This document shows positions 4,165 to 47,772 of a stretch of DNA of 64,000 bases, piece after piece; the stretch's first letter is position 1, and each line of letters starts with the position of its first letter. The notes under the pieces were generated by a model. The model searched no databases, had not been told where the DNA came from, and saw only the letters and a program-made list of their open reading frames with translations. The translations under genes were made by a program, and so were the position numbers. Origin of the DNA: Cystobacterineae bacterium (GTDB taxonomy: Bacteria; Myxococcota; Myxococcia; Myxococcales; Myxococcaceae); contig WQYA01000003.1 of assembly GCA_009781495.1 (NCBI GenBank), positions 1 through 64,000 on the forward strand. The letters run 5' to 3'.

Positions 4165-4242
4165 TGCACACCCAAGCTTTTTAGAATATTGCCAGTCAGA
4201 CTTGTCCTCCTTTAGCCTGTCTTCATTCAACCTGGAAACAAT

Positions 4243-4258
4243 CAGCAAAACTTTGCTG
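4243..4258. promoter_or_regulatory. palindrome in divergent promoter region
   Basis: CAGCAAA and TTTGCTG form a perfect 7-base inverted repeat with a 2-base centre. It lies between the response regulator gene (start 4164, minus) and the 5'-nucleotidase gene (start 4291, plus). Position and symmetry suit a dimeric repressor or response-regulator site. This is inference from symmetry only. Confidence 0.4.
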
Positions 4259-4290
4259 GCTGACGTCTTGTCACTGAGGAATACATCAGA

Positions 4291-5898
4291 TTGAAACTCT
4301 TACACGGAAGTGTCAACGGGCCGATTGACCGCAGCCTCACACAAAAAATCCAAGAGCAGGCCAGAAAACTGCTGGCCGAAAACATTTCAGGGGACAACAC
4401 AGCAACTCAGGGGACTTTGGCTCAAGTTGAGCGAGCACGGCAAGTTTTCGTCAATCGAAACCTGCGCATGTCAACCATTGAGCTGATTGGTTTCGACATG
4501 GATTATACCCTTGCCATCTATCACCAACGGAGAATTGAACAAATCTCCTTTGAGCTCAGCCTGAAAAAGCTGGTGGGCAACTATGGGTACCCAGCAGAGA
4601 TTCTGCACATCCCCTATGATCCGCATTTTGCAATCCGCGGGCTCTGCATGGACAAAGCCCATGGCAATCTCGTCAAAATGGATCGCTTCGGCCATGTCGG
4701 TCGAGCCATGCATGGACGTACGCCTCTGGACAGCAAGGAATATAAACGCCTCTATAGAGACGAGAGAATACGCCCGTTCAACCCCTCCTATAGTTGGATT
4801 GATACGCTGTTTTCTCTCCCCGAAGCCTGCATGTTTGCCGACATTATTGAAATGCTTGAGGTGCGGCAAAAACAATCCGTGGACTATGCCCAACTTTGCT
4901 CGGACATTCGAGATGCCATTGATGGCATCCACCGGGATGGCTCGCTCAAAGAAATCATCCTCCAAAATATGGAGCACTATATTTATAAAGACAAGGAGCT
5001 GGGGCCCACATTGCACAAGCTTCGCTCCGGGGGGAAAAAACTCTTTTTGCTGACCAACTCTGCGCATGGCTACACACAAGCTGTCATGAGTTATTTGCTC
5101 GATAATGCCATCCCTGAATATCCCTCTTGGAAAAATTATTTTGACTTCATTATTACCGACGCCTGCAAACCCCTTTTCTTCTCCGGAAATGCCCCTTTTG
5201 AAGAAGTAGAGCCTGAAAATCCCCTCCTTGAAACCGTCTCCTCCCTTGAGCGTGGGAAAATATATCAACGTGGAAACCTCTCCGACTTTGAGCGGATGAC
5301 CAAAATCGGCGGTGATGCGGTGCTCTATGTCGGAGACCATATTTATGGCGACATTTTGAAATCCAAACAGGCTTCTCTCTGGAGGACCTGCATGGTGGTC
5401 CAGGAGCTTGAAGACGAAATGAGTTATTTGGCGTCGCGTGCGGAGGACATATTGACTTTGTCGGAACTTGAACAATTCCGAAAAAATTTGGACGAAGAAA
5501 TCTCTTCCATGCGCACGACATTCAACCTTTTTGAGCGTCGCCTTGACAAAGAAACGCCTACGCCGACTTTGGTTCAATCTCGCAGGGAAGCAAGGGCCTC
5601 ACTGGAAACCCTTCGTCAACGTTTTCGAGAAACGAATGACTTGAGTCGCCAGCTCGCTCTGGAAATTGACAAGGGATTCAACGCATATTGGGGGTTGGTT
5701 TTTAAGGAAGGCAACGAAACGAGCCGCTTCGGGGAACAAGTCGAGCAATATGCGTGCATCTATACCAGTCGCGTGTCAAATCTGCTTTTCTATTCGCCCA
5801 TGCAATATTTTCGCTCTGCACGAGACTTCATGGCCCACGAGAGAGACGGCTTTCTCACCTGGAAAAAAACCGAGGGTGAGGCTGAAAAGCCATATTGA
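4291..5898 (+). CDS. HAD-IG family 5'-nucleotidase
   Basis: The protein has 535 residues if started at TTG 4291, which has GAGGA ten bases upstream; the next good candidate, ATG 4468, would remove the helix that normally precedes the domain. HAD motif I is FDMDYTLA (about residue 68), motif II is the LLTNS strand (about 255), and motif IV is VGDHIYGDI (about 350). The large cap and C-terminal helical region match the cytosolic purine 5'-nucleotidase (cN-II-like, HAD-IG) family, which is roughly this long. It should dephosphorylate nucleoside 5'-monophosphates such as IMP or GMP in the cytoplasm. It is divergent from the response regulator and convergent with the diguanylate cyclase gene, 27 bases away. 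Family assignment is secure; substrate preference is inferred. Confidence 0.88.
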   Translation: MKLLHGSVNGPIDRSLTQKIQEQARKLLAENISGDNTATQGTLAQVERARQVFVNRNLRMSTIELIGFDMDYTLAIYHQRRIEQISFELSLKKLVGNYGYPAEILHIPYDPHFAIRGLCMDKAHGNLVKMDRFGHVGRAMHGRTPLDSKEYKRLYRDERIRPFNPSYSWIDTLFSLPEACMFADIIEMLEVRQKQSVDYAQLCSDIRDAIDGIHRDGSLKEIILQNMEHYIYKDKELGPTLHKLRSGGKKLFLLTNSAHGYTQAVMSYLLDNAIPEYPSWKNYFDFIITDACKPLFFSGNAPFEEVEPENPLLETVSSLERGKIYQRGNLSDFERMTKIGGDAVLYVGDHIYGDILKSKQASLWRTCMVVQELEDEMSYLASRAEDILTLSELEQFRKNLDEEISSMRTTFNLFERRLDKETPTPTLVQSRREARASLETLRQRFRETNDLSRQLALEIDKGFNAYWGLVFKEGNETSRFGEQVEQYACIYTSRVSNLLFYSPMQYFRSARDFMAHERDGFLTWKKTEGEAEKPY

Positions 5899-5925
5899 GT
5901 TTGAAGTATTTGGGCTCTCTGTATT

Positions 5926-8064
5926 TCATTGAGCCAGAAGACTTGAGGTGGTGCTTTCCCGCAACAACTTGGAGGAGGCCCCCTTGTTGGAGGACGTTGC
6001 AACCATGCAATTTCGCCCCTTGCGTTTGGCCATATAGAGGCGTTTGTCTGCCATTTCAATCAGCGCTGCTTTGTCCTTGGCACATTCTGGAAATGTGGCA
6101 ACTCCCAGTGACACCGTCACCCGAAGCATTCCTTGTTCCGTCTGAAACATCTCCGCCATCACCGCCTCTCGGATGCGCTCTGCAATGACTTGTGCCCCTT
6201 GCAAGTCTGTCTCGGGCATAATCAGCGCAAACTCTTCCCCTCCATAGCGCGTGGGAATGTCAGAATCTCTCGCCAACTTGCGCAGAAGTTTTCCTATCCT
6301 CTTCAAAACATAATCGCCGATGGGGTGCCCATATTTGTCATTGACGCTTTTGAAATGGTCTACATCAAACAAAATCAACGAGCACTGACGCCCATAACGT
6401 TTGGAGGCGCTGAGCAATTCATCCAAACGTACTTGAAACGTTCTGTGGTTATAGAGGCCCGTCAACCCATCCATCGTCGCCATTTTTTCCATCTGCTCAA
6501 ACAACTGTGCCCTCAAAACAGCTTGTGCCGCTGAAATGGCCACCACTTCCAACATGCGCAACCCATCTGCCTCAATGGCCAGCTTCTTCTTGCTCCCAAC
6601 AACAAGCGTTCCCAGGGTACGTTCTCCAGCCGTCAAAGGAAAAACTTTGATGGAGCCCATGCTTCCCAAAAGAATGTTCTCACAAAAAACAACATGCCTC
6701 TCGGAGGGAAGCGTGTCCTTGCTGGGCAGGGCGACACCATAGCGGACAACACTGGCGACAAGCCCCACGTTGTCCTCGAATGCCTTCTGCTCCATAGAAA
6801 CATCCCCCCCTGAAACCCGGGCAATTCTGTGAAAACGTTTCCCCTCTGAATCATCCACCAAAGTAATGGCACAAAAATCCAATGGAGCAATGTGTCGAGC
6901 GCTTTCTATGATTGCCGACAAAACCTGCTCGGGAGAACTTGAGCGATTCAAATCATTCACCACACGGAAAAACCTGTCTCGCTCAGACGCATTCCGTCGG
7001 ACATTCACCATAATCCGCTCTAAATCCATGACGCGCTGAATTTCTTGCGCAAGCACCGAAAGCTGTACCTCATCTTCAGCTTGAAAAGGAGCGCCTTTGG
7101 CACGTTCCACAAGCACAATGCCCGAAACAACACCTTCCTTGCCTTTCAAAGCAGTGGCAAGCAAAGCTTGAATGGCATGTGTGCGCCCCGCGCAATAACC
7201 CAGACTTTTGAGTCCATTTTCTGAAAAGAGATGCAAGGGCGCTTCTTTTTTCAATACGGCGCTCAACGCTCCTTCGGTGGACAAAAACGGCTCCCTCTTG
7301 TGTTGCTGGATGTCTCCTGCCCCCAAGTGCCAACACAAACTCTGCCTGTCTTCTGAAACCAAAAAGACAGCGGCACTGTCTGCCCGCAAAGCATAGTGCA
7401 GCACCTTCAACAAATTCTCCAAGGCGCCATCCACCTCACGCACAGAAGCCAGAAGCCACTCTGTCTGCGAAGAATAGGTTTCGCCTGAAAGTCGAAGCCG
7501 AAGCGCTCTCTTTTCGAGCTCCTTCATCCTCGCTTCAATGGCATTCTTTTCAGCCCGCCTGGCGCTCCAAAACTTTGCCGACAACACCAAATGATAGAAG
7601 GCCGCAAACAGCGCCATCCAAAAAACGTGGGCAACAAACCCCTTCCAATTTCTGCCTCCCTGCCCCAACAGAGTGACAGGCACATCCAGAAAAATCGCCG
7701 CCCCGCAGAGCCAACCAACGCTGCGTTTGGAAAAAAGCAGCGTGCAGCAGGCAAGGCACAAAAAAACAGCAGGGAAACCATCGGGCCTAAAACCGGCGGC
7801 GAAGAGAAAGCTGCTGATTAAAATGCTTAGGCCTAGCTCCAGGTCTCCTTGAAATTCACCAACGGTCTGAAACTTGCGCCTGGAAAACGCTAGCCCCATC
7901 GCCAATAACCCCAAGGCACCCACCCCAATGTCCACAACCAACAAATGTGGGGATTGAGCAAATCCCCCCAGCCAAAGCCAGAAAAAACCTAACCCAAGCC
8001 CCAGCCATACGCCCAGGGCCCCTGCCCTCTTTAGGTTATAAAACCACCTCCAAAGGCGCTTCAT
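5926..8064 (-). CDS. membrane-anchored GAF-GGDEF diguanylate cyclase
   Basis: The protein has 712 residues. The first 175 or so are hydrophobic with about five or six membrane spans, followed by a charged coiled coil (about 175-205). One GAF-like domain lies at about 205-345 and a second at about 380-525. The C-terminal GGDEF domain has the active-site signature RYGGEEF with an RDSD motif five residues before it, matching the RxxD inhibitory I-site. It should make cyclic di-GMP from two GTP and be feedback-inhibited by the product. Its ATG overlaps the stop of ftsB as ATGA, so it is translationally coupled to it and is the last gene of the menaquinone operon. The GAF ligands are unknown. A link between quinone supply, division and c-di-GMP is suggested by the arrangement only. 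Confidence 0.92.
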   Translation of the reverse strand: MKRLWRWFYNLKRAGALGVWLGLGLGFFWLWLGGFAQSPHLLVVDIGVGALGLLAMGLAFSRRKFQTVGEFQGDLELGLSILISSFLFAAGFRPDGFPAVFLCLACCTLLFSKRSVGWLCGAAIFLDVPVTLLGQGGRNWKGFVAHVFWMALFAAFYHLVLSAKFWSARRAEKNAIEARMKELEKRALRLRLSGETYSSQTEWLLASVREVDGALENLLKVLHYALRADSAAVFLVSEDRQSLCWHLGAGDIQQHKREPFLSTEGALSAVLKKEAPLHLFSENGLKSLGYCAGRTHAIQALLATALKGKEGVVSGIVLVERAKGAPFQAEDEVQLSVLAQEIQRVMDLERIMVNVRRNASERDRFFRVVNDLNRSSSPEQVLSAIIESARHIAPLDFCAITLVDDSEGKRFHRIARVSGGDVSMEQKAFEDNVGLVASVVRYGVALPSKDTLPSERHVVFCENILLGSMGSIKVFPLTAGERTLGTLVVGSKKKLAIEADGLRMLEVVAISAAQAVLRAQLFEQMEKMATMDGLTGLYNHRTFQVRLDELLSASKRYGRQCSLILFDVDHFKSVNDKYGHPIGDYVLKRIGKLLRKLARDSDIPTRYGGEEFALIMPETDLQGAQVIAERIREAVMAEMFQTEQGMLRVTVSLGVATFPECAKDKAALIEMADKRLYMAKRKGRNCMVATSSNKGASSKLLRESTTSSLLAQ

Positions 8065-8345
8065 GGCCCCCCCTCAAACGAAAAAATCATCTCGTCCGGA
8101 CGAATGTAGCCCAACTCTTCACGCAAAGCCCGCTCCATCACTTTCGCGTCTGTCTTGAGTGCCTCAATTTCTGCCCTCAACTTGGCATTCTCCGCCGTCA
8201 ACTCCTGGTTTTTTTGACGCAACATCAACGCCCCTTGAGACAAAGAGCGGTAGCGATTCAGGCCCCCACCCGACAAAAAAACCCCCAGTGCTGCCAGCAG
8301 GACAAGCGCAGCAACAACCCACAAAAGTTTTCTTCGGGTGAACAT
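8061..8345 (-). CDS. ftsB: FtsB/DivIC-like septum formation protein
   Basis: The protein has 94 residues from ATG 8345; a TTG at 8369 in frame would add eight. One membrane span (about residues 6-25) is followed by a heptad-type coiled coil (about 35-75), then LGYIRPDEMIF, the conserved end of FtsB/DivIC proteins. Size and layout match the family. It should act at the division site as a single-pass membrane protein bridging FtsL and FtsQ. It sits 45 bases after menE on the same strand and overlaps the diguanylate cyclase start by four bases. In many bacteria ftsB is near eno or ispD; a place behind menaquinone genes is unusual. No strong ribosome binding site is visible at either start. Confidence 0.85.
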   Translation of the reverse strand: MFTRRKLLWVVAALVLLAALGVFLSGGGLNRYRSLSQGALMLRQKNQELTAENAKLRAEIEALKTDAKVMERALREELGYIRPDEMIFSFEGGP

Positions 8346-8390
8346 GTCTGTAGCAAAGCTAGCAGGCAACCTGGGCTGCGCAAGAAAACG

Positions 8391-9803
8391 TCAAAAATTG
8401 CGAGAGGCGGAACGTTGATGAATGATTTCTTGCAACTTTTGGCGATCTGTTTTGCCGTTGGCATGCTTCGGCAAAGCCTCAACTGCAAAAACGGCCTTGG
8501 GGATTTTGTAGCCGGCAAGGTATCTTCGACAATGCTGCACAAGCGCTTCTTCAACAAACAAGCCTTGGGAAACAACCAATGCAACGGGGACTTGTCCCCA
8601 TGGCTCACTTGAATGTGCGCCAACGGCGGCCTCTTGGATGCCGGGGTATTGCAGCAGCACACGCTCAATTTCTGCCGGGTATATGTTCTCCCCGCCAGAA
8701 ATGATTAAGTCTACTCGACGCGAGAGGACGACCAGGCGGCCTTGAGTGTCCCAATATCCCAAATCCCCTGTCCTAAACCAACCCTCTGAAACGAGAACCG
8801 TCTGCCCACGTATTTCAATTTCCCCAACCTCCCCCCTCGCCACCTCCTGAAAGGTTTCATTGCACATTCGAAGCTCTACGCCGGGCAATGGAAATCCGCA
8901 ACTCTCTCCATCCGCTTTGCCCACAGGTTCCGTCGCTACCTGGGAGCAAGCTTCCGTCAGGCCATAGCTGCACACCACGGGAATTCCCATTTGCCTTGCT
9001 CTCAAAAACAACGGCAAGGGAACATGCGCCCCTCCCAAAAGACAAACTTTCATCCCCGGCGGAATGGGTTTTTCACGGCGGTATTCCAACCAGCGTGACA
9101 ACATCGTCGGGACCAAACTGAGGTGGGTCATATGCCCGGCTTCCACTTCAAAATCCAAGGCCTCTACGTTAAACTTTTCTGCGAGACTCAGCGTTGCCCC
9201 ATAGAGGGCACACCGGCTTAAATTGCTGAGCCCGCCCACATGAAACAAGGGCATGCATACATACCAAATATGCTGGGCTTCTCCACCCAGGTTGGCAGCG
9301 GAAGCCTTGGCATGCGCCAACAAATGGCGGTGACGAATGTCGATGCGCTTGGGTGTCCCCGTTGTCCCGGAAGTGAATAAAGTGACAGCCACATTTTCTT
9401 CGGCATAACTTGAAGCCGTTGCATGGGGAGGCGTTGGGGCAAGCTTTGGAAAAACTTCTCCGAGAGGGAATTTCTCCAAAAGCGCCTCTTCTATAAAACA
9501 AAGTTTGAGAGCAGACGAGGACTCCAATAAGGACAATTCCTTCTTTGTCAAACGCGCATTCAACAAAACCAGTCGAGCGCCCAGACGAGCACAGGCGTGG
9601 AAAAGCGCGACGGTGTCCGGCTTGTTGAATGCCAAGAGGCCTAGCCCATCCCCATTTTTAATGCCCCTGGAGGACAACTCTTGTGTCCAAGCGTATACCC
9701 AAGCATTCAGCTCCTCCCAACTCCACGCCTTGCCCTCAAACCTCAAGGCAATGGCCTTGGGTGTTTTTTGGGCCCACTGTTCAACAAGGCATTGCATAGG
9801 CAC
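8391..9803 (-). CDS. menE: o-succinylbenzoate-CoA ligase MenE
   Basis: The 470-residue protein is an ANL-superfamily adenylate-forming enzyme. It shows the P-loop LFTSGTTGTPK (about residue 145), the SYGLTEACSQ motif, WFRTGDLG, and the hinge and C-terminal catalytic lysine region around ALPKHANGKTDR. MenE activates o-succinylbenzoate with ATP and joins it to CoA, which supplies the substrate of MenB. The assignment to MenE over other acyl-CoA ligases rests on the neighbours, which are all men genes. The GTG at 9803 follows the menC stop with no gap; an ATG at 9797 is two codons in and could be the true start. It is cytoplasmic and co-transcribed with menC. Confidence 0.92.
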   Translation of the reverse strand: MPMQCLVEQWAQKTPKAIALRFEGKAWSWEELNAWVYAWTQELSSRGIKNGDGLGLLAFNKPDTVALFHACARLGARLVLLNARLTKKELSLLESSSALKLCFIEEALLEKFPLGEVFPKLAPTPPHATASSYAEENVAVTLFTSGTTGTPKRIDIRHRHLLAHAKASAANLGGEAQHIWYVCMPLFHVGGLSNLSRCALYGATLSLAEKFNVEALDFEVEAGHMTHLSLVPTMLSRWLEYRREKPIPPGMKVCLLGGAHVPLPLFLRARQMGIPVVCSYGLTEACSQVATEPVGKADGESCGFPLPGVELRMCNETFQEVARGEVGEIEIRGQTVLVSEGWFRTGDLGYWDTQGRLVVLSRRVDLIISGGENIYPAEIERVLLQYPGIQEAAVGAHSSEPWGQVPVALVVSQGLFVEEALVQHCRRYLAGYKIPKAVFAVEALPKHANGKTDRQKLQEIIHQRSASRNF

Positions 9804-10850
9804 TCAGGGAATACCCCATCCGGGTTGGCTTGGAAGCACAATTTCTCCGCCCCGAGGGGAAAAAAAATCCCCTTCAAACCCCTCCAACAATTCCGGAGAG
9901 CTCAGGCCGTGCGCTTGCTGAGTCTCCCCCAAAGCAAAAGCCAAATGTGCCGCAGCGGCTCTGCCAATGGGCCCATCCAAAAAGGTTGTTACAAAGGAAG
10001 AAACCTTTTTTTGCCGCGCGCGTTTTGCCATCTGCATGGCCGGAATCAGTCCTCCCATGGCCGCAGGTTTGAGGACAATGGCGTCTATTTCCGCGCTTCC
10101 TTCCAGCAGTGTATTCGCTACGCCTTCGTCCAGCAAAGCCTCGTCCGCAGCCAGGGGAATGCCCAAATTCATACGGTGTAAACGACGCAAAGCATGCACG
10201 TCTTTGGCTGGAACAGGTTGCTCGCAAAGCTCCACATGCAACATGCTCACCCCCCGAAGAAAAACACGCGCCTCCATCTCATTCCATGCGCCATTGGCGT
10301 CTATACGTATGCCCGGCGAGTCCCCTAGGCTTCGACGAAGCCTGCCTAAACAATGAGCGTCCCACTCCAAAGAGGCAGCTCCTACTTTTAATTTTAGTTT
10401 TGAAAACCCAGCTTGCACCGCATTCAAAGCCGAATGCTCCAAAGCTGTGGGCTCTTGTCCATCCAGCAGGGCATAACATGAAATTTGAGGAGGCGCTTGT
10501 TTGGAAAACAACTGCCAAACAGGGCATGCCTTTTGAAGCGCCATCCTTTCTAAAAAGGCTGTTTCCACGCCAAACCGCGTGCATGGAAGTTGCTTGAGGC
10601 CAAGCAAACGCTCTTCGAGTTCTTCCAAAGTGTTGGGCATGGGCGTCATCTTCAGCGAAGAAAGCGCTTGGGCTGCTTGAGAAAGCGTCTCTGTCCCAAA
10701 GGAAGGCATGGGGTAAACTTCCCCCCGCCCACAACAACCCTCCCCGTCTTCCAGAAAAATACGAAAACCCTCCCGCTGCTTAAAACAGCCATGTGAAGTC
10801 AGCAGGGCTGTCTTCAGTTTTAAAACACAATGCTCAAAACGAAGCTTCAC
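9804..10850 (-). CDS. menC: o-succinylbenzoate synthase MenC
   Basis: The protein has 348 residues from GTG 10850, chosen because it overlaps the menA stop as GTGA; the open frame extends to 10997 but lies inside menA there. It belongs to the enolase superfamily: FSKLKLKVG carries the KxK catalytic pair, RIDANGAW gives the first metal aspartate, ELCEQPVP and AADEALL give the next acidic ligands, and IVLKPAAMGG the second catalytic lysine. It dehydrates SHCHC to o-succinylbenzoate in menaquinone synthesis. Size agrees with other MenC. It is translationally coupled to menA upstream and directly abuts menE downstream. Confidence 0.93.
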   Translation of the reverse strand: MKLRFEHCVLKLKTALLTSHGCFKQREGFRIFLEDGEGCCGRGEVYPMPSFGTETLSQAAQALSSLKMTPMPNTLEELEERLLGLKQLPCTRFGVETAFLERMALQKACPVWQLFSKQAPPQISCYALLDGQEPTALEHSALNAVQAGFSKLKLKVGAASLEWDAHCLGRLRRSLGDSPGIRIDANGAWNEMEARVFLRGVSMLHVELCEQPVPAKDVHALRRLHRMNLGIPLAADEALLDEGVANTLLEGSAEIDAIVLKPAAMGGLIPAMQMAKRARQKKVSSFVTTFLDGPIGRAAAAHLAFALGETQQAHGLSSPELLEGFEGDFFSPRGGEIVLPSQPGWGIP

Positions 10851-11728
10851 AACACAACCCCTATGGCCAATAAAAACCCAAAGCCGGCCATGAGAAATGC
10901 CGTATGCCCCAACACGGCATTCAACGCGCGGCCTCGCAATGAAAACAAACCCAGGGTTGAACGGACTGCAAACGGCAAGGAGAGGAATACCAGCCACACC
11001 CAGGGGAAACGCTCAAAACACAGCTTCAATGAAACGCCATAACCCCAAGCCAACATGAAAACATATTGCCACCTCCCAAAGGCTTCACCCCAACGTACAA
11101 CCAAGGTGCGCTTGTTCGCTTGCGCGTCGGTTGCAAAATCTCTCACATTGTTGACTGCCAACAACGCAACCCCCAATGCCCCAACAATGGAGCCCAGCCA
11201 CAACACATCCGCACTCAAATGAAAGCTTTGGACAAAATAGCTTCCACCCACCGCTACCAAACCGAAAAAGACAAAAACAAAAACATCCCCCAGGCCATGG
11301 TAGGCAAGAGGGAATGGGCCACCTGTGTATATGTAGCCGGCCAGCAGAGAAAGAAGGCCCACCCATAGAATGGGCCACCCTGCTACCCATACCAAATAGA
11401 GGCCCAAAACCAGGGCCAGCGCAAAACATGTCAACGCGGCACCCAACACCACTTTGGGAGGAAGCCAACCTTGTTGTGTCGCTCTGGGCGGCCCGAGGCG
11501 AGACGCGTTGTCCGCACCACGTCGCCAGTCAAAATAGTCGTTGGTGAGGTTGGTCCCTACCTGAATCAACAAAGCACCCAACAGCGCCACCAACATGGTG
11601 TCCGCTCGAAAACACGCATCCTTCCACGCAAGCGCGGAGCCGACAGCGACAGGCACGGCCGCTGCCACCAACGTGCGTGGCCGGGAAGCCCACAACAATG
11701 CCCACAGAGAATTTTTGGGTTTTGTCAC
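10847..11728 (-). CDS. menA: 1,4-dihydroxy-2-naphthoate prenyltransferase MenA
   Basis: The 293-residue protein is a UbiA-superfamily membrane prenyltransferase with about eight hydrophobic spans. The first Asp-rich motif is [14 protein letters not shown] (about residue 62) and the second region is [16 protein letters not shown] (about 190), both needed for magnesium-diphosphate binding. It attaches the isoprenoid chain to dihydroxynaphthoate at the inner membrane, giving demethylmenaquinone. The start is GTG 11728, overlapping the menB stop as GTGA. Its own stop overlaps the menC start the same way. The product is the substrate of the divergent menG gene. Confidence 0.94.
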
Positions 11729-12552
11729 GGTCGCCTTGGAAATTTTGAGAAATCCGGTTTGCGTTTTTCCAAATAGGCCTTCTTCCCCTCCTGCGCTTCC
11801 TCCGTCATATAATAAAGCATCGTCGCATTGCCGGCGAGTTCCTGCACGCCTGCTTGGCCATCAATGGCCGCATTAAACGCGGACTTCAACATGCGCAAAG
11901 CCAAGGGGCTCATCTCCAATATTTCAGCGCACCAACGCAGGGTTTCTTCTTCCAGGTTTTCAAGGGGGACAACGGCGTTGACAAGCCCCATGCGCAATGC
12001 ATCTTCGGCGTTGTATTGTCGGCACAAAAACCAAATTTCCCGCGCTTTCTTCTGGCCGACAATCGACGCCAAATAGGAAGCGCCAAAACCCCCATCAAAA
12101 CTTCCGACGCGAGGCCCCGTTTGCCCAAACCGCGCATTGTCGGCACAAATGGTTAAGTCGCAAACCACGTGAAGCACGTGCCCTCCCCCAATGGCATAAC
12201 CGGCTACCATGGCAATAACGGGCTTCGGCAGGGAGCGAATTTGCTTTTGCAAGTCCAAAACGTTGAGACGGGGGACGCCATCCTCTCCCACATAGCCTTC
12301 ACTGCCTCGAATGCGCTGATCTCCGCCGGAGCAAAAAGCCTTGTCGCCGGCGCCTGTGAGAATAATGACTCCAACATCCACATCCTCTCGTGCATCTTCA
12401 AATGCCGTTTGCAACTCAAACAAAGTTTGGGGACGAAATGCATTGCGTACTTCGGGTCGGTTGATGGTTATTTTCGCAATGCCGTTCCATTTTTCATATT
12501 TTATGTCGCCAAATTCTTTGGCCAACGCATCTGTTTTCCAATCTGCCTTCAT
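11725..12552 (-). CDS. menB: 1,4-dihydroxy-2-naphthoyl-CoA synthase MenB
   Basis: The 275-residue protein is a crotonase-fold enzyme very close in sequence to well-known MenB. It shows [18 protein letters not shown], the [14 protein letters not shown] stretch with the catalytic Asp, and the C-terminal [11 protein letters not shown]. It closes the second ring of o-succinylbenzoyl-CoA to give DHNA-CoA in the cytoplasm. ATG 12552 has GAGGT seven bases upstream. It begins 51 bases after menH, the only gap of this kind within the men genes, so a secondary promoter there is possible. Its stop overlaps the menA start by four bases. Assignment is firm. Confidence 0.97.
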
Positions 12553-37007: not shown

Positions 37008-37050
37008 GCCTTACCTCCTACGAATGGCAATCCGAGTTGTCATTGTTAGC

Positions 37051-37093
37051 GTTATAATTCACAGCAGGTTTCGTCTAATAAATTTCGAAACCT
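37051..37093 (-). promoter_or_regulatory. probable promoter and operator of the czc operon
   Basis: On the minus strand TTAGAC (37073-37078) and TATAAC (37051-37056) form -35 and -10 boxes 16 bases apart, 44 bases before the czcB ATG. A perfect inverted repeat AGGTTTCG/CGAAACCT (37066-37073 and 37086-37093, 12-base centre) overlaps the -35 box. Such placement fits a metal-responsive repressor. No regulator gene is adjacent. Confidence 0.55.
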
Positions 37094-38206
37094 ATCGGCA
37101 TCATAATCGACGCGAAAGACTTGTGCATGACCCGAACAAAAACGAGTCCAACGAAGAGATCATGTCAAAGTGAAAGCGGTCTGGCGGGATACTCCACGGC
37201 AGGATGCTCCACCCTGGATATTCGCCATGACTCTGGAACCGGGAGGGGAAACCGGCAGAGATAGAGACGCCTTGGGGCCTAAGGTGCTACATTTCCACCC
37301 ATGTGTCACAGCGACTTCATGCAACATAAAACCGGTCCAGTCCCTCCTAGCTTCAGCCAAATGTCATTTTCCGTCTATATATTAGGTGACGTATATATAG
37401 GTGACGTCGCCGTCGGGTTGGTGGACCAGCCTCAAAAGCCATAGCCTGTCCTGGTCGGCTTTGTTTTGCTGAATGCCAGTGTAACAGCATAGGTTTTTAG
37501 ATGGGACGGCGGAGCCCCCGTTCCCCGCTGGCGTTGTAGGATATGGAAATGGAAGCCATCTGTCCTGCCCCCTTATTCGTCATTGCATTATCATATTTTT
37601 GAATATTTTGAGTCGGCTTAAGCGTTTTGAAATTTCATCATTTTAGCCTCACCAAAGAAAGTTTAAATTCGTGAATACTTCCAGATGTCTGGCAAAAAAA
37701 TGTCGCTTAAAGCATCTTTATTGGCATTATGCGTACTGTATATACATATCTACGGATTCTTAATGAATAATGTTTATTTTAGCTAAAACCATTTAAAAAT
37801 ATTCAGGTTATTTTTTATTTTCTCAAGGCAGCCGCTGCTTCAAATTTTTATCCCATGGAGGGCTTCCAACAGAGCAGAGCAAACCAAGCAAGCTTCAAAC
37901 AAAAACCACCCGACAGGCCCCCCAAACCCTTCACCGGAAGCGACGAGAACCTCAGTTATGAAAAAAATGTCTGAGGCGTTTGAACGCCTTCTGAGCAGGC
38001 ATGGATGGGGCTTGCAGCATAACCTCTTGATTTAACACGAAAATAAATGCCATGGATCTCCCATCTGTTGCCACAAACAGCAGATCATCACTCTCAATTG
38101 TACGAGGCGCACAAAATATTTCTTACTTACAAGCAACAAATGGGTAGGATGTTCAGATAATGGTTTTTAGACGTCTCTTATTTTTGCATACCCAAGCGAG
38201 GACATA
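37094..38206. other. long gene-poor, A/T-rich intergenic stretch
   Basis: About 1.1 kb without a convincing gene. It holds two near copies of TATATA-TAGGTGACG in tandem (about 37375-37407). A hairpin with GAGGCGTT/AACGCCTTC arms lies at about 37971-37989. From about 37560 to 38200 the sequence turns clearly A/T-rich. One small open frame of 33 codons (37685-37786) encodes a hydrophobic peptide but has no ribosome binding site, so it is not called. The region may hold the promoter and long leader of the gene at 38207, or be a remnant of transferred DNA. Confidence 0.6.
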
Positions 38207-39292
38207 GTGAAAACCAATAATTTCCTTCAAAGCATCGTAACGAAGGCTACCGACGCAGCCCTCAAGAAATTAGATCTGCCCAGCAAACTGCCAACAAAGG
38301 TGGCCTCACCCGAAGCCAAGGCCAGTGGCAACTTCACCGAATATGGCACACAAGGTGACAAATACAAGTTCAGTGCTAAGGACAGCTTTGAGAATAACTG
38401 GTCTGGCTCCAAATCCGGATCGGCGGAGTTCAATCTCAAGCCCGAAACGCAGAAAAAGCTTGAGGATGGCGCCAAAACACTGGGCACTCTCCAGAAGGGC
38501 CTTGAGGCCATCGGCATCAAACCCGAGCTGAAGAAAGATTTTGACACGGAGTGGTCCAAGAAGGCCGAGGCCAGCACCTCCGGAAAGGTTCAGGGGAAAT
38601 ATGGCGAGGCCGAGTATGCGGCCAACGCTTCCGCTGAGATCTCAGCCGGCGCATCCGGACAAGCCACTCTCAACATGAACGGCCTTGACGCAAGCTTCAA
38701 CGCGAAGGTAGGTATCGAGGCCACAGCGGAAATTTCCGGCAAAGCCTCCGCGAACTTCAACGTTGCCGGCGTGGATATTCCCGTATCCGCCGAAGGGCAT
38801 GCGAAAGCAACGGCCAAAGCGTCTGCAGAGGCCAACGGTTCGGCCAAAATCACCCGAGATCCGCTCACTGCCGTCGCCGAGGGCTCTATAGGTGCATCGG
38901 CAGTTGCCAAATTGGAAGGCGACATCAAAGCCTCTGCGGGCCCCTTCAGCGTCAAGGCAAGTGGCTATGTGAGTGCAGGTGCTGAAGCTTCAGCGTCCGG
39001 AAAAATCGGCTATGAGGATGGCAAGTTCACGCTCAGCGGAAACCTCGGTGCGGCACTCGGCGTCGGTGCCGGCGCCTCCGTGGACGTCGAGGTGGACCTC
39101 AAACAGATCGGCAACATGGCCAAGGATGCGGCCGTCCACGTGGCCGAGAAGGCAGCCGACGCGGCTGTCCACATGGCCGAAACGGCGGTCAACGATGCCA
39201 AAAACACGGCCGAAAAAGCGGTCAACGAGGTCAAACACACCGTGGACAAGGCTGCAGGCCTCGTGAAAGGTTTGTTCGGCTTCGGCAACTAG
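38207..39292 (+). CDS. Ala/Gly/Ser-rich repetitive protein, function unknown
   Basis: The 361-residue protein starts at GTG 38207 with GAGG upstream. I do not recognise it. No signal peptide is present. The first 125 residues are charged, with Lys-rich helices. From about 125 to 300 the chain alternates small and polar residues (for example ASAEISAGASGQATLNMNG, EGHAKATAKASAEANGSA). This suggests many short beta strands, as in a solenoid or barrel-like stack. The end (about 300-350) is a run of 11-residue amphipathic helix repeats (AAVHVAEKAADAAVHMAET) like LEA proteins, finishing GLVKGLFGFGN. The general look recalls repetitive segments of polymorphic toxins and contractile-injection cargo, but that is a guess. 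A TPR protein follows 42 bases later. Confidence 0.8.
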   Translation: MKTNNFLQSIVTKATDAALKKLDLPSKLPTKVASPEAKASGNFTEYGTQGDKYKFSAKDSFENNWSGSKSGSAEFNLKPETQKKLEDGAKTLGTLQKGLEAIGIKPELKKDFDTEWSKKAEASTSGKVQGKYGEAEYAANASAEISAGASGQATLNMNGLDASFNAKVGIEATAEISGKASANFNVAGVDIPVSAEGHAKATAKASAEANGSAKITRDPLTAVAEGSIGASAVAKLEGDIKASAGPFSVKASGYVSAGAEASASGKIGYEDGKFTLSGNLGAALGVGAGASVDVEVDLKQIGNMAKDAAVHVAEKAADAAVHMAETAVNDAKNTAEKAVNEVKHTVDKAAGLVKGLFGFGN

Positions 39293-39334
39293 GCTGCCAA
39301 TCTCCGCTTCCCAACCTATAAATTTTGATGGATA

Positions 39335-40672
39335 ATGTTGTCTATGGCAAAGAACGAACTGTATCGGCGTGCAAGTGAAGAGTTGAAAGCGGGAAATTAT
39401 GAAGAGGCCAAACGGCTCTTCCTCAAACATGAGGAAGAGTCGGGTACTGCGGCAGAGACACCCTCTCTGCTGCAACGAGCGGATGAGCTCTTCACGAAGG
39501 GGGAGGTTGTTCAAGCCACGCAACTCTATGAGCAGATCTTAAATCGAAACCCATCGTTGGTGGGCGTCTATCTGGGCTTTGCTCGTATTGCTCTGCTCAC
39601 AGGCCAAATGGAGGCTGCGAAAATCCACGCCCAAGCCGCAGTTCGGATAGGGCCTGGCAACGGGATGGCATGGACGCTGATCGGCATCGTGGAAGAGGCC
39701 GAAGGCAATCCGGATGCCGCGCTGCAATACCTCGAAAAGGGGGTTGAGCTCGCTCCTTCTGCCTTCTTCTGCCAATACAACTATGGGCGGGTACTCGTCG
39801 CCACGAAGCGGTCAACCATGGAGTCGGCTATGGGAATTGCCGCACTGCTTGAGGCGACCAAACTGGAGCCACACAACCGCGACGCGCTTTTCATGCTGGG
39901 CAACGCCTACCGGGAAGCAAAGCAATATGAGAAGGCGATTCGAGCTTTCGAGGCAGCCCGGGACATCGATCCTAAAAATGTCGAAACGTGGGCTACACTG
40001 ATCGATCTGCTCTTCGAGGGCAAGGAGTTCAAAGCCGCCCAAGACATCGCCAACGCGGCACTCAGCAACTGTGGCGATCACCCGGCGCTGCTCGAAAAAG
40101 CAATGGCGACGGCGATGATGCTCTCGGACTCCACGACAGCAATGGACTATGTGGAACGCGAGCTTAAGCTTGTCCCGGAGCACGAGCAAGGGTGGCTCAA
40201 CCTGGCGAACCTGGCACTCCTCAACAAGGATTTCGACAAAAGCGAGAACGCTGCCTGTGAGCTGCTGCGGAGGAACCCGAAGAGCTGGGAGGCATGGTAC
40301 CACCTGGGCAACCTCTATGACGTCGTTCCAAAACGGGAGAAAGAGGCTGAGGAGGCCTATCGCAACTCGATAAAGCTCGCTCCCGACAACTGGAAACCGT
40401 TGACCAATCTGGCCGGCATGTTCATCCAGATGGCTGCAAAAGAGAAAAACGCCGAGGCCCTTACGCTGCTTGAGAAGGCCATTCCTCTCGCGCCCGAGGG
40501 GGAGTGGCGTGTCCACTATAACCTGGCCCTCGCGCACACGAAACTCGGCAATCCGGACAAGGCACTCGAAATAGCCCGTGCAATTCAGAAAAGCGCACCC
40601 CAGGACAATCCGATGTTCGCCGAGGCCCGCAAGCTCGAATCGAACCTCCTCGAAGCTCAGAAAAAATCCTAA
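39335..40672 (+). CDS. TPR repeat protein
   Basis: The 445-residue protein is built of about ten tetratricopeptide repeats from residue 5 to 435; typical stretches are LYRRASEELKAGNYEEAKRL, AMWTLIG-like AWTLIGIVEEAEGNPDAAL, and ALFMLGNAYREAKQYEKAI. No signal peptide, membrane span or other domain is visible, so it is probably cytoplasmic and serves as a binding scaffold. ATG 39335 and ATG 39344 are both possible and neither has a clear ribosome binding site. It lies 42 bases after the Ala-rich repetitive protein gene on the same strand, so the two are probably co-transcribed and may interact. Three hairpins follow the stop. Confidence 0.88.
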   Translation: MLSMAKNELYRRASEELKAGNYEEAKRLFLKHEEESGTAAETPSLLQRADELFTKGEVVQATQLYEQILNRNPSLVGVYLGFARIALLTGQMEAAKIHAQAAVRIGPGNGMAWTLIGIVEEAEGNPDAALQYLEKGVELAPSAFFCQYNYGRVLVATKRSTMESAMGIAALLEATKLEPHNRDALFMLGNAYREAKQYEKAIRAFEAARDIDPKNVETWATLIDLLFEGKEFKAAQDIANAALSNCGDHPALLEKAMATAMMLSDSTTAMDYVERELKLVPEHEQGWLNLANLALLNKDFDKSENAACELLRRNPKSWEAWYHLGNLYDVVPKREKEAEEAYRNSIKLAPDNWKPLTNLAGMFIQMAAKEKNAEALTLLEKAIPLAPEGEWRVHYNLALAHTKLGNPDKALEIARAIQKSAPQDNPMFAEARKLESNLLEAQKKS

Positions 40673-44407: not shown

Positions 44408-46402
44408 TCAGGGGGGGCAGCAGACGGGGGGGCAGCAGCTGGGATAACAGTCTGAACGGCAACGGGAACAATCCAGAGGGGGGCTAGCAGGGGCTACCGG
44501 GGAGGGCATGACCCTTGAGGCGGCGGCGTTGTTGTCATTGGCGGCCAACGTACGCTGGCTGGTGGTGACGCAGACGTCATCGCCGATAAAGGCCTCCCTC
44601 CAGACATAACCTGACTTGCAGGTATGCACACCATAGGCGCCCACCACCCAACGCGAGGCTTTGGCAGCGTTGTCCGCAGCTACCTGTGTGCGGGTGGCCG
44701 GCGTAACGCAGACATAGTCCGATAGGTCCGCCTCCCTCCAGACATAACCCACTTTGCAAGTATTGGGACCAAATACATTTTGCGCCGGGTTGACGCGTGA
44801 GGCGGCGGCTTTGTTGTCATTGGCGGCCTGCGTACGCTGGCTGGTGGTGACGCAGACGTCATCGCCCGGAAAGGCCTCCCGCCAAACATAACCTGACTTG
44901 CAGGTATGTGCACCATAGGCGCCCACCACCCAACGCGAGGCTTTGACAGCGTTGTCCGCTGCTACCTGCGCGCGGGTGGCCGGCGTGACACAAACGCGGT
45001 CGCTGTCTCTGGCTTCCCGCCAGACATAGCCGACGAGGCAACGCTGAACGATGTTGGTGGTAATGGTGACGGAGGCAGCCGTGTCCGTCATGCTGTTGAT
45101 ACGAATTTGCACATCGTTCTTGTTGAGCGATGCTATGGGTCCACCTTTAGGCCCGGTACGAAGGAGATAGGGGGTGCCATATTTCACTTCACGTATCAGC
45201 ACTTGCTTCTCCTCATGAAAGCCTTTGCCCCAATTGACTTTACGACGGTATTCGACGGTATAATAGCGGAATGGATCTGCCGGCTCAAAAGGAACGCGCA
45301 CCAACAATGGCCCCGAAGATGCCGATGGGGCCTCCAGCGGCGCAAGGCTCAGCGTCCTTGAAGCAACTCCGTCGGCCCCCATGGTGAATACCCGGTTGCG
45401 CGGCAACCAACCCAACTTGTCGCGTTGGTAGCCCCCTAGCCCAACCCCACTGTCCCCAAAAATGCTGGTTTTAAAACTATAGGCGCCTTGGTTGCCCATC
45501 ACATCCCACGGGTCATCATATTCCCCGGCTTTGGCCCAGCACGCGTTCCTATAGGTGGTATCGTCGGAGAACCCATGGCCTAAGCCATAGACATGAAGCA
45601 TCTCATGGGCGGCAGTGCCGACGTTCCATCCGTTGTAGTCGAGCGTCACACGGGCGTCCTCGGCGCCATTGTCGATGATATGGCTAAAAATAACGATAAT
45701 TCTATGGTTGCTCGGAACGCTATAGCCCCCTTTCTTCGCGGCGTCGATGCAGTGCTGAGCACGTGGCCCGCGCTGCGTAGGTGGAAACATCATTTGTGCA
45801 GCGGTATAAGGCAGGGTATACCACCCCCGCACGGCCGAACCACTCAGCGAAATTAACCCGCCGGACTGGTCCGCCAAATAGCCAGCTACCCCGTCGGTAT
45901 TGGCCTGAGTGAAGAATTTAATGAAATAGTCCATGTCATATTTCTGGGCAATCCGCGAGGCGGCGGCTTTGTTGTCATTGGCGGCCTGCGTACGCTGGCT
46001 GGTGGTGACGCAGACGTCATCCCCAACAAAAGCCTCCCGCCAAACATAACCTGACTTGCAAGTATGCGAACCATAGGCGCCCACCACCCAACGCGAAACT
46101 TTGGCCGCGTTGTCCTCCGCCACCTGCCTGCGGGTTGCCTCCGTGACGCAGACATAGTCCAGCAGGTCGGCCTGTCGCCAGACATAGTTTGTCTGGCATT
46201 TGCTCGCAAAGTCCCTCTGATCTTGAAACTTGCACAGCAGCACAGACCAGGGCGTGTTGCCACGAATCGGCACAGCCTCCGCGGGAACAGCTACGCCCAA
46301 AATACCCAGCGTGAGAAAAATTCCCATCGCCGAATGAACCCACCTTAGCCCAAAAAACACCTTCAAGAAATGTATGGCTGTCCAGCCTGTTCTCATGCGC
46401 AT
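44408..46402 (-). CDS. secreted metalloprotease with six GYVWREA repeats
   Basis: The protein has 664 residues from ATG 46402, with AAAGGACGG upstream; the longer frame to 46579 reads as non-coding. A membrane or signal segment lies at about 25-43 (ending VPAEA). Two copies of a 37-residue repeat follow (about 69-106 and 114-150), with the pattern C..GYVWREA...D.VCVT...R...A.DN.AA.SR. The protease domain has HEMLHVYGLGH (residues 266-276), a metzincin-type zinc motif. Four more repeats fill about 454-630. The last 20 residues are Cys/Pro-rich (CRSDCYPSCCPPVCCPP). Each repeat has two conserved cysteines, likely one disulfide, so they could be binding modules. Substrate is unknown. Confidence 0.88.
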   Translation of the reverse strand: MRMRTGWTAIHFLKVFFGLRWVHSAMGIFLTLGILGVAVPAEAVPIRGNTPWSVLLCKFQDQRDFASKCQTNYVWRQADLLDYVCVTEATRRQVAEDNAAKVSRWVVGAYGSHTCKSGYVWREAFVGDDVCVTTSQRTQAANDNKAAASRIAQKYDMDYFIKFFTQANTDGVAGYLADQSGGLISLSGSAVRGWYTLPYTAAQMMFPPTQRGPRAQHCIDAAKKGGYSVPSNHRIIVIFSHIIDNGAEDARVTLDYNGWNVGTAAHEMLHVYGLGHGFSDDTTYRNACWAKAGEYDDPWDVMGNQGAYSFKTSIFGDSGVGLGGYQRDKLGWLPRNRVFTMGADGVASRTLSLAPLEAPSASSGPLLVRVPFEPADPFRYYTVEYRRKVNWGKGFHEEKQVLIREVKYGTPYLLRTGPKGGPIASLNKNDVQIRINSMTDTAASVTITTNIVQRCLVGYVWREARDSDRVCVTPATRAQVAADNAVKASRWVVGAYGAHTCKSGYVWREAFPGDDVCVTTSQRTQAANDNKAAASRVNPAQNVFGPNTCKVGYVWREADLSDYVCVTPATRTQVAADNAAKASRWVVGAYGVHTCKSGYVWREAFIGDDVCVTTSQRTLAANDNNAAASRVMPSPVAPASPPLDCSRCRSDCYPSCCPPVCCPP
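44513..45043 (-). repeat. four C-terminal GYVWREA repeats
   Basis: Four copies of the 37-residue module, separated by short linkers, lie in the C-terminal third of the metalloprotease. Copies 2 and 4 and copies 1 and 3 are more alike, so a two-module unit of about 92-94 residues was duplicated. Confidence 0.9.
45953..46198 (-). repeat. two N-terminal GYVWREA repeats
   Basis: Two copies of the same module precede the zinc-protease domain. They again alternate as a WRQADLLD-like and a WREAFVGD-like type, the same A-B order as in the C-terminal set. Confidence 0.88.
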
Positions 46403-46674
46403 GCGGGTCCGTCCTTTCTTTTTGGCATTATGACGCACAAGACAGTTATTCGCACAATTAAATATATTTATATTCAAATTTAAGCTAATGTTAAACTTAA
46501 ATCTCCCATCTCTGTTCCTTAAGGGGTTATTGGTAAGCCGTGGCGTGGCAGCTGAGGGAGGAAGCCACGTCTCGTCCAAAAATACCAGCTTGCTTTTGTC
46601 CTAAGCGGACTGTTTGCGCCGCTGTTTGTCACGTGCCTGTCTTAAGTCTTCGCGCGCTTGCTCGCTTGCGTGCC

Positions 46675-47772
46675 TCATTGAGACAGATGGGTTTGAATCC
46701 AATCCGCAACATCTTGTCTTGCATTGAATTTTCCCCTTCGGATATCCCCCCCGAGACGCCAACCCGCCAAACTCAATAATAAGTCTTGATATGAATTGCC
46801 TTTTTGATCGGAATTCACGGCAATGCCTCCGGTCGTCGTCCCGTCCTCATTCTCTTTAGGTTTCAGAATTTCCAACGCAGCACCCAATTTAAGCTCCTTG
46901 GGGTTCTCTCCCAGTGCCGCGTTGGCTTGCTTGAAAGTTTGAACATCCTCGTTGGTGGCTGCGTTATATTGCGTCCAAAATGCAAGCGGTTCTGTTATGG
47001 ATAAGTCCGGCGTCTTTTCGTGCCCAACCATCAACCGAATCGCCACTTCTTCATCGCTGACCGACGCAGGGACAGCAAGCATGTCTCTGATGTTTGTAAC
47101 CAGCGGCAACGGCACAACCGTTGGCGTTATGCCACGCAACATGCTCCATGTTGAAATGACTTTTTCGTTGGGTTTGGATACAAAATCGGGATGGAGGCCT
47201 AAGTTGACGGCGGTTAGGAAGTGGCCCACTTGATTATCGCTGGATTCGTGCGGATCCTTAAACAGCCCGCCAAAGCCTTCGTCATGCCATCCATCAACGA
47301 TTCCACCTGTCTTCAGCCCGGGTACAGCCCAGTGTTCCGTGGCCTTGAGTATTCGCTGCATTCTGTCGTAGGCAGTGTCGCTGCTTGCATCTTTGCCGTC
47401 GAAACAGTTCGATGAAAAAAAACCGGCCAAGTCTTGGACTCTGTTTGGAAGCCCAGGCTTGGGGGAATTCTCTTGGCGCTGAACCTGCTTTGGCTGCATT
47501 GCGTCGCCACCCATGCTGCGTTGCTGAACGACATGCGCAAGCTCGTGCCCCAAGAGCTTTTGGTCTGCAAAGCTGCCGGAAGCACCCAAGGCAATGTTGT
47601 TGCCCAGCGTGAAAGCTTTGGCGCCGAGGGATTCAGCCATTTGAGCAGCGTTGTCACCCCTATGAAGGCGCACTTGGCTGAAGTCCTGGCCAAAGCGGGG
47701 CTCAAAAAAGGCGCGGGTGGGGGTGTCGAGGGGGGCGCCGCCCTGGTTAAGGGAATGGAGGGAGGACTCCAT
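46675..47772 (-). CDS. DUF4157 (eCIS-associated metallopeptidase-like) protein
   Basis: The frame gives 365 residues from ATG 47772. A DUF4157 domain lies near the N-terminus (about 13-87): LDTPTRAFFEPRFGQDFSQV, then the zinc motif GHELAHVVQQR. The family is often encoded near extracellular contractile injection systems or toxins and is thought to include cargo-processing proteases. The rest is unrecognised; it contains several DNA-free, probably helical stretches. Upstream of ATG 47772 the frame continues as sensible DUF4157-like sequence (AHIQKNLKASSSVAAAASPQ) to a TAG, with only a CTG or ATA as start. The real N-terminus may therefore be longer or damaged. No injection-system genes are in the window. 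Confidence 0.78.
   Translation of the reverse strand: MESSLHSLNQGGAPLDTPTRAFFEPRFGQDFSQVRLHRGDNAAQMAESLGAKAFTLGNNIALGASGSFADQKLLGHELAHVVQQRSMGGDAMQPKQVQRQENSPKPGLPNRVQDLAGFFSSNCFDGKDASSDTAYDRMQRILKATEHWAVPGLKTGGIVDGWHDEGFGGLFKDPHESSDNQVGHFLTAVNLGLHPDFVSKPNEKVISTWSMLRGITPTVVPLPLVTNIRDMLAVPASVSDEEVAIRLMVGHEKTPDLSITEPLAFWTQYNAATNEDVQTFKQANAALGENPKELKLGAALEILKPKENEDGTTTGGIAVNSDQKGNSYQDLLLSLAGWRLGGDIRRGKFNARQDVADWIQTHLSQ

What the first reader, a model, noticed from the sequence alone, without database searches (positions are those of the whole stretch)
38207..40672. Unrecognised Ala/Gly/Ser repetitive protein paired with a TPR scaffold
Seen: a 361-residue protein without signal peptide, with a charged N-terminus, about 175 residues of alternating small and polar residues and an 11-residue amphipathic tail, followed 42 bases later by a pure TPR protein. 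A 1.1 kb gene-poor A/T-rich stretch precedes it. Known: similar low-complexity alternation occurs in cargo or toxin carriers and in LEA-like protectants. Inference: the pair could be an exported or self-assembling protein with its dedicated chaperone or scaffold. I cannot place it in any described system, which makes it the best candidate for something new in this window.
Basis: partly seen in the sequence, partly recalled or inferred. Interest (0 to 1): 0.62.

Follow-up and report, generated by a model that had tools for sequence, protein, structure and literature searches.

The report
Conserved beta-sheet protein with TPR partner
Two neighbouring genes in a genome-reduced relative of predatory myxobacteria encode an undescribed protein predicted to be built of very long alternating beta-strands and a helical-repeat partner; the two have stayed together across the phylum, which suggests a chaperone and its cargo, probably an exported one.

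Summary
ORF 38207-39292 (361 aa) matches no curated family. It carries a ~190-residue core predicted as seven ~25-residue antiparallel strands, one face Ala/Gly-rich and one polar, then amphipathic helices and an aromatic C-terminus. A TPR protein follows.

The pair is real and conserved. Orthologues of both occur in the same 23 of 98 related genomes and never alone. Across the wider family, 37 distinct pairs are adjacent and their divergence is strongly correlated (Mantel r 0.93). One MAG (G198) has five core paralogues, each with its own TPR gene just downstream. One distant relative appears to fuse TPR-like repeats to the core. In four of five actinobacterial relatives the core sits behind a Pfam ESX/type VII domain, which suggests an exported module. 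The window's genus is a genome-reduced Myxococcaceae lineage with a termite-gut member.

Best reading: an exported or surface-assembling beta protein with a dedicated cytosolic TPR chaperone. Pairing is well supported; export is inferred; the route is unknown. Many carriers lack T6SS. A type III-type export gate is present in every myxococcotal carrier scanned, but also in most non-carriers. LEA-like, phage, defence and polymorphic-toxin readings are not supported. Protein family undescribed; moderate-to-high interest.

The parts
37008..38206 (.). A/T-rich stretch without a recognisable gene upstream of the pair; presumably holds the promoter
   Evidence: GC 0.444 against window 0.528; promoter-like sites no more than about 2 sd above shuffles; no Rfam match; no DNA similarity to the region upstream of the same-genus homologue
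38207..39292 (+). 361-aa small-residue long-strand beta protein (here 'SRP'), GTG start, no signal peptide seen
   Evidence: homologues; dN/dS about 0.15 against G002
38207..38527 (+). aa 1-107: variable, mostly low-confidence N-terminal part (replaces about 200-350 aa of Thr/Ser/Lys-rich beta hairpins in free-living relatives and about 190 aa of amphipathic helical repeats in the same-genus relative)
   Evidence: AF2 pLDDT mostly under 50 over aa 1-77, 50s over aa 80-107; alignments; L021 model
38528..39097 (+). aa 108-297: conserved core, seven predicted antiparallel strands of 23-29 residues joined by short turns; one face Ala/Gly/Val, other face Ser/Glu/Lys
   Evidence: AF2 pLDDT about 75-84; face composition; conservation
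39098..39289 (+). aa 298-361: amphipathic helical tail with 11-residue repeats, ending ...GLVKGLFGFGN
   Evidence: aromatic residue in last six in 54 of 71 family members
39293..39343 (+). short intergenic stretch, largely identical in the same-genus genome
   Evidence: side-by-side sequences
39344..40672 (+). TPR protein, probable start 39344 (442 aa; the longer ORF starts at 39335); no other Pfam domain evident
   Evidence: Pfam TPR_14 2.9e-34; start choice; orthologues; dN/dS about 0.09

Best explanation
The two genes form one functional module. The first encodes a protein made without an N-terminal signal, whose core folds into a long, amphipathic, antiparallel beta sheet with a smooth Ala/Gly-rich apolar face, followed by amphipathic helices and an aromatic C-terminal tag. 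The second encodes a cytosolic TPR superhelix. I propose that the TPR protein is the dedicated chaperone or targeting partner of the beta protein: it binds the new chain (perhaps its tail or apolar strands), keeps it soluble and hands it to an export machine, after which the sheet closes or self-assembles at a membrane or surface. Shown here: the pairing, its conservation and correlated divergence, and the absence of any known family for the core. Predicted: the fold. Inferred: physical binding, export, assembly and the route.
For: (1) Identical phylogenetic profiles: strong SRP hits and TPR orthologues at E<=1e-50 occur in the same 23 of 98 genomes. (2) TPR gene directly downstream on the same strand in 37 distinct pairs from several subfamilies. 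In the fetched loci nearly every TPR hit lies at that position, and TPR is the only neighbour conserved across sub-clades. (3) Core and TPR distances correlate, Mantel r 0.932, 0 of 2000 permutations as high; clusters largely agree. (4) MAG G198 has five core paralogues, each with its own TPR gene 6-109 nt downstream. (5) G177 encodes a 1206-aa protein with TPR-like repeats (TPR_2 6.9e-4, below the gathering score) plus the core. (6) In 4 of 5 actinobacterial relatives the core follows a Pfam ESX/T7SS domain: T7SS_signal 2.3e-39, 1.3e-38, 2.2e-28; EspA_EspE 1.9e-24. (7) Long strands with one apolar face are plausibly aggregation-prone and in need of a chaperone (inference). (8) Purifying selection on both genes.
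Against: Two core subfamilies (e.g. L080/L084/L087 and L081/L088/L089) show no TPR gene downstream, and some subfamily-A paralogues (L035, L037, L039, L040) lack one, so a TPR partner is not universally required. No secretion machinery is linked to the pair. TPR proteins are common in these genomes, and the Mantel test does not remove shared phylogeny. The L110 TPR match is weak. The same-genus genome G001 lacks the pair, so it is dispensable. The ESX fusions are distant relatives in another phylum. The AF2 model has mean pLDDT 63.8 and pTM 0.47.
Confidence: 0.5

Rival explanations
1. Intracellular lipid- or granule-coating module: the amphipathic sheet and 11-mer helices coat a lipid body, polyester granule or membrane, as apolipoproteins, perilipins or phasins do, with the TPR protein as scaffold.
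For: In the family scan one member each matches Apolipoprotein (8e-7) and Perilipin (2.1e-6) (the report was for the set, and the amphipathic-helical same-genus member L042 is the likely source). ApoB100 is among the generic beta matches. The window tail matches phasin models weakly (E 0.2 and 0.067). A Saprospiraceae relative has two copies, each next to a gene whose sequence I read as a thiolase.
Against: The apolar face is 42% Ala and 13% Gly rather than bulky residues. No window match reaches a curated cut-off. ESX fusions in Actinobacteria argue for export. The thiolase association is seen in one genome only.
Confidence: 0.2
2. Intracellular structural or self-assembling filament/sheet protein with a TPR scaffold, not exported.
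For: Single-layer-like long meander in the models, with Thr-rich hairpins at pLDDT about 90 in L021; a short match to the magnetosome TPR protein MamA among TPR hits; no signal peptide.
Against: ESX fusions in Actinobacteria; the TPR match to MamA is generic.
Confidence: 0.15
3. Desiccation/stress protectant of the LEA type; low-complexity composition is the function and the TPR neighbour is incidental.
For: Low-complexity composition, 11-mer helical repeats; one family member matches LEA_4 at 0.015.
Against: No LEA match for the window protein; predicted beta core with many invariant positions; TPR pairing conserved with correlated divergence.
Confidence: 0.04
4. Carrier of a polymorphic toxin or a contractile-injection cargo.
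For: ESX signals on actinobacterial relatives resemble the architecture of ESX/T7SS toxins; a DUF4157-like ORF (by my reading) lies 6 kb away in the window.
Against: In most members the core is followed only by helical or aromatic tails rather than variable toxin domains; no immunity-like gene is conserved next to it and the DUF4157-like ORF is not conserved nearby; T6SS TssK is absent from G000, G002 and seven other carriers scanned.
Confidence: 0.08

Closest known systems
Type III secretion class II (TPR) chaperones of translocators (SycD/LcrH, IpgC; YscY/SctY)
   Same: A cytosolic TPR protein dedicated to a neighbouring amphipathic exported partner (SycD-YopD, PMC3443056; YscX:YscY bound to the gate SctV, PMC9163089). 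The window TPR region matches NCBIfam SctY (6e-13) and LcrH_SycD (6.2e-13).
   Different: About 442 aa with TPRs along most of the chain; scores 48.6-49.2 bits against cut-offs 104.8 and 70. The partner is a long beta sheet, and no type III genes lie beside it.
ESX / type VII secretion substrates with T7SS_signal or EspA_EspE domains (Actinobacteria)
   Same: Same beta core at the C-terminal end in L049, L135, L136 and L138.
   Different: The window protein has no such signal domain; in Myxococcota the core is accompanied by a TPR gene.
Outer-membrane beta-barrels / TPR-barrel exporters (PgaA, BcsC, Slam)
   Same: Antiparallel meander with alternating polar and apolar residues; generic structural matches to porins, autotransporter barrels and LptD; TPR plus beta meander as a recurring combination (from general knowledge of these exporters).
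   Different: Strands about 25 residues, no signal peptide, sheet followed by helices instead of a terminal beta-signal, no match above the structural background.
Apolipoprotein / perilipin / phasin amphipathic proteins
   Same: 11-mer amphipathic helices flanking an amphipathic sheet.
   Different: Ala/Gly-rich apolar face; no curated cut-off reached by the window protein; ESX fusions in relatives.

Membership tests
T3SS class II TPR chaperone (LcrH/SycD, SctY) | Score above the NCBIfam equivalog cut-off | tested here: not met
   48.6 bits against 104.8 (TIGR02552) and 49.2 against 70 (NF052415)
T3SS class II TPR chaperone (LcrH/SycD, SctY) | Gene beside type III secretion genes | tested here: not met
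   No neighbour other than the pair is conserved across sub-clades. In single-contig genomes the core genes and FHIPEP lie 110 kb to several Mb apart by coordinates
T3SS class II TPR chaperone (LcrH/SycD, SctY) | Binds its cargo and promotes its export | not testable with these tools
   needs biochemistry
ESX/T7SS substrate | N-terminal WXG/T7SS_signal/Esp domain | tested here: not met
   no such match in the window protein; present in four of five actinobacterial relatives
LEA / hydrophilin protectant | LEA Pfam match | tested here: not met
   no LEA match for the window protein at E<=1
Phasin / perilipin / apolipoprotein | Match above the curated cut-off in the window protein | tested here: not met
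   Phasin 12.1 bits against 28.8, PHA_granule_1 13.3 against 94.7
[quoted passage not shown]
   The core is C-terminal and constant, with helical/aromatic or short tails; N-termini vary; no conserved immunity-like neighbour
Outer-membrane beta-barrel | Barrel fold | tested here: inconclusive
   best PDB matches are barrels but at background level (Foldseek best E 2.7e-3; VIA Z about 9)
Outer-membrane beta-barrel | Sec signal peptide | tested here: not met
   N-terminus MKTNNFLQSIVTKATDAALKK lacks a hydrophobic core (by reading; no predictor run)
Anti-phage defence protein | PADLOC match | tested here: not met
   none for the beta protein; only weak TPR-type matches for its partner

The most novel reading that the evidence does not exclude
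These beta-core/TPR pairs are a substrate-chaperone class of the needleless type III-like apparatus (T3SS*) of myxobacteria, whose effectors are unknown (PMC10433427) and still hypothetical in a 2025 study (PMC12075869): the TPR protein would deliver the beta protein to the export gate and the beta protein would assemble on or in the contacted cell. Not excluded: the one T3SS gate gene is retained even in the 2.1-2.7 Mb genomes of this genus, and every myxococcotal carrier scanned has one. Weak: most non-carriers have it too, and the genes are not linked.
Probability: 0.12. Interest if true: 0.87.

Novelty: new variant of a known kind. Interest (0 to 1): 0.6.

Why it matters
A protein family absent from Pfam, NCBIfam and PHROGs, with several paralogues per genome in predatory myxobacteria and with ESX-fused relatives in Actinobacteria, would be a shared exported beta module used with different delivery solutions: an ESX signal in one phylum, a TPR partner gene in another. 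It gives concrete, small, testable candidates for Sec-independent exported proteins in myxobacteria, where the cargo of the contact-killing apparatus is still unknown. Its retention in two of three genomes of a genome-reduced genus with a termite-gut member suggests it matters outside soil predation too.

Tried and rejected
Single-sequence scans of viral and GTDB contigs found nothing; the alignment was needed. No relatives in viral, phage or plasmid collections, so a mobile-element origin was dropped. PDB by sequence: only a designed bundle at E 10 for the protein and short low-complexity matches for the profile. Structure searches gave only generic barrels, LptD and ApoB, which I do not read as homology; a family missing from those lists is not excluded. 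T6SS as a general route: TssK absent in G000, G002 and in seven other carriers scanned. FHIPEP correlation: all 57 core-positive genomes have it, but so do 102 others, so it is not diagnostic. Upstream DNA was searched for a remnant of the longer N-terminus of the same-genus homologue: none. DUF4157 and other window neighbours are not conserved near the pair. Literature searches gave no paper naming this family.

Full report
Observation. The alternation of small/apolar and polar residues over aa 108-297 is extreme (lag-1 and lag-2 autocorrelation z -7.1 and +6.3). The tail carries 11-residue repeats. The upstream stretch is A/T-rich (44.4% against 52.8% G+C) and shows no gene, no Rfam element and no remnant of a longer N-terminus. 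The TPR start is probably 39344, because the same-genus homologue has ATGGCAAAG there and no ATG at 39335. Both genes are under purifying selection (NG86 dN 0.168/dS 1.09 and 0.092/1.01).

Host. The window lies in G000, a 2.27-Mb, 102-contig, 88%-complete genome. The closest homologue (73%, G002, 2.7 Mb, 99% complete) is on a 64,261-base contig that matches WRKR01000012.1, MAG Cystobacterineae bacterium Th196P3bin117. Th196 is the termite Termes hospes (PMC7024585). The free-living relatives are named Archangium, Citreicoccus and other Myxococcaceae with genomes of 5-13 Mb. The window's genus is therefore a genome-reduced lineage with at least one termite-gut member.

Family. The 361-aa protein matches no Pfam, NCBIfam, PHROGs, PADLOC or PDB sequence family. 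In Myxococcaceae relatives the protein is mostly 520-720 aa: a variable N-terminus, often Thr/Ser/Lys-rich repeats, then the core (53-57% identical in the best hits), then an EF-hand/dockerin-like motif (ten of 28 aligned members match Dockerin_1), an amphipathic helix and in most a final aromatic tag such as WLGL, WFGF or WLPW. The window version lost the EF-hand-like motif and most of the N-terminus. More distant subfamilies keep the core and usually the tag: 54 of 71 family members have W or F in the last six residues against about 21% expected from composition, though these members are not independent. Outside Myxococcota the core is rare: 5 of 247 genomes of the actinobacterial class and 1 of 247 of the Bacteroidota class.

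Structure. AlphaFold2 gives seven antiparallel strands of 23-29 residues at aa 108-297 (pLDDT about 75-84), then helices; overall pLDDT 63.8, pTM 0.47. The full-length Citreicoccus relative (L021) gives an N-terminal meander of shorter strands at pLDDT about 90, a helix, and the long-strand core. One face of the window strands is 42% Ala, 13% Gly, 12% Val; the other is Ser, Glu, Lys, Gly. Structural searches return many unrelated barrels, LptD and ApoB at background level, so the fold is a long-strand meander without an assignable relative.

Pairing. Strong SRP hits and the orthologous TPR gene at E<=1e-50 occur in the same 23 of 98 genomes, none with only one of them. By position the TPR gene is normally the next gene downstream; in three sub-clade members one or two unrelated genes sit between and in G020 and G004 the pair is divergently oriented. 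In the wider superfamily 37 distinct adjacent pairs were collected; core and TPR distances correlate with r 0.932 and the clusters largely agree. MAG G198 has five core paralogues, each followed by its own TPR gene at 6-109 nt. A distant member of the phylum (G177) appears to carry TPR-like repeats and core in one 1206-aa protein (TPR score below the gathering cut-off). Two subfamilies (examples L080/L087 and L081/L088) and some subfamily-A paralogues have no TPR gene next to them. Nothing else is conserved near the pair across sub-clades, including the DUF4157-like ORF in this window.

Export inference. In Actinobacteria four of five members place the core after a Pfam ESX/T7SS domain (T7SS_signal 2.3e-39, 1.3e-38, 2.2e-28; EspA_EspE 1.9e-24), and the fifth (L137) looks WXG-like by eye without a Pfam match. 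This is the main reason to think that the core is an exported module. In Myxococcota neither gene has a recognisable signal sequence by reading, so a Sec-independent route would be needed. T6SS is not required. The export-gate family FHIPEP is found in every myxococcotal core carrier scanned, including the 1.1-Mb G177. It is also present in most non-carriers (159 of 195 genomes in all), so it is permissive evidence only. The myxobacterial T3SS* has unknown effectors and several LcrH-type chaperone homologues (PMC10433427), and its effectors were still hypothetical in a 2025 study (PMC12075869). That makes the link worth testing but not established.

Judgement. Functional pairing: well supported (about 0.85). 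TPR as chaperone or targeting partner of an exported beta protein: about 0.5. T3SS* as the route: about 0.12. The lipid-coating and internal-scaffold rivals remain open; LEA-like, defence, phage and polymorphic-toxin readings are disfavoured. In kind, cargo plus dedicated TPR chaperone is known from type III secretion, but the membership tests for that family were not met. This is therefore a new variant built from an undescribed protein family.

Noticed in passing
window 46678-47772 (-): ORF beginning MESSLHSLNQGGAPLDTPTRAFFEPRFGQDFSQVRLHRGDNAAQMAESLGAKAFTLG, which reads like a DUF4157-type domain; 6 kb from the pair and not conserved near it in relatives.
   Followed up: partly
window 44411-46579 (-): Putative secreted metalloprotease-like ORF (HEMLHVYGLGH-type motif by reading) flanked by repeated 'GYVWREAFxGDDVCVTxxxRxQxAxDN' modules at both ends.
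   Followed up: no
L047 (Saprospiraceae MAG) 3861-5345 and 8869-10350: Two copies of the beta-core protein in tandem, each followed by a gene that reads like a thiolase (5402-6586, 10477-11742); seen in this genome only.
   Followed up: partly
L139 (G198) 4549-8481 (-): 1311-aa relative with many tandem beta-hairpin repeats (KLNDDTKLNNKVGIKDGKVTV...), core, EF hands and long amphipathic GVDAIGDGLQAVGRGI-type repeats ending LVRFFGG.
   Followed up: partly
L048 (Rhodospirillaceae MAG) 3-2114: ALTTAQ repeats (Pfam PF20080, 4.1e-23) fused to the same beta core.
   Followed up: no
G000:C14:34823-36844, G001:C178, G002:C22: A single FHIPEP (T3SS export gate) gene is retained in all three genomes (2.1-2.7 Mb) of this genus although T6SS TssK is absent.
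   Followed up: partly
L035, L037, L040 downstream of the core gene: TPR-less core paralogues are followed at about 70-120 nt by a large sensor histidine-kinase-like protein (by reading) instead.
   Followed up: no
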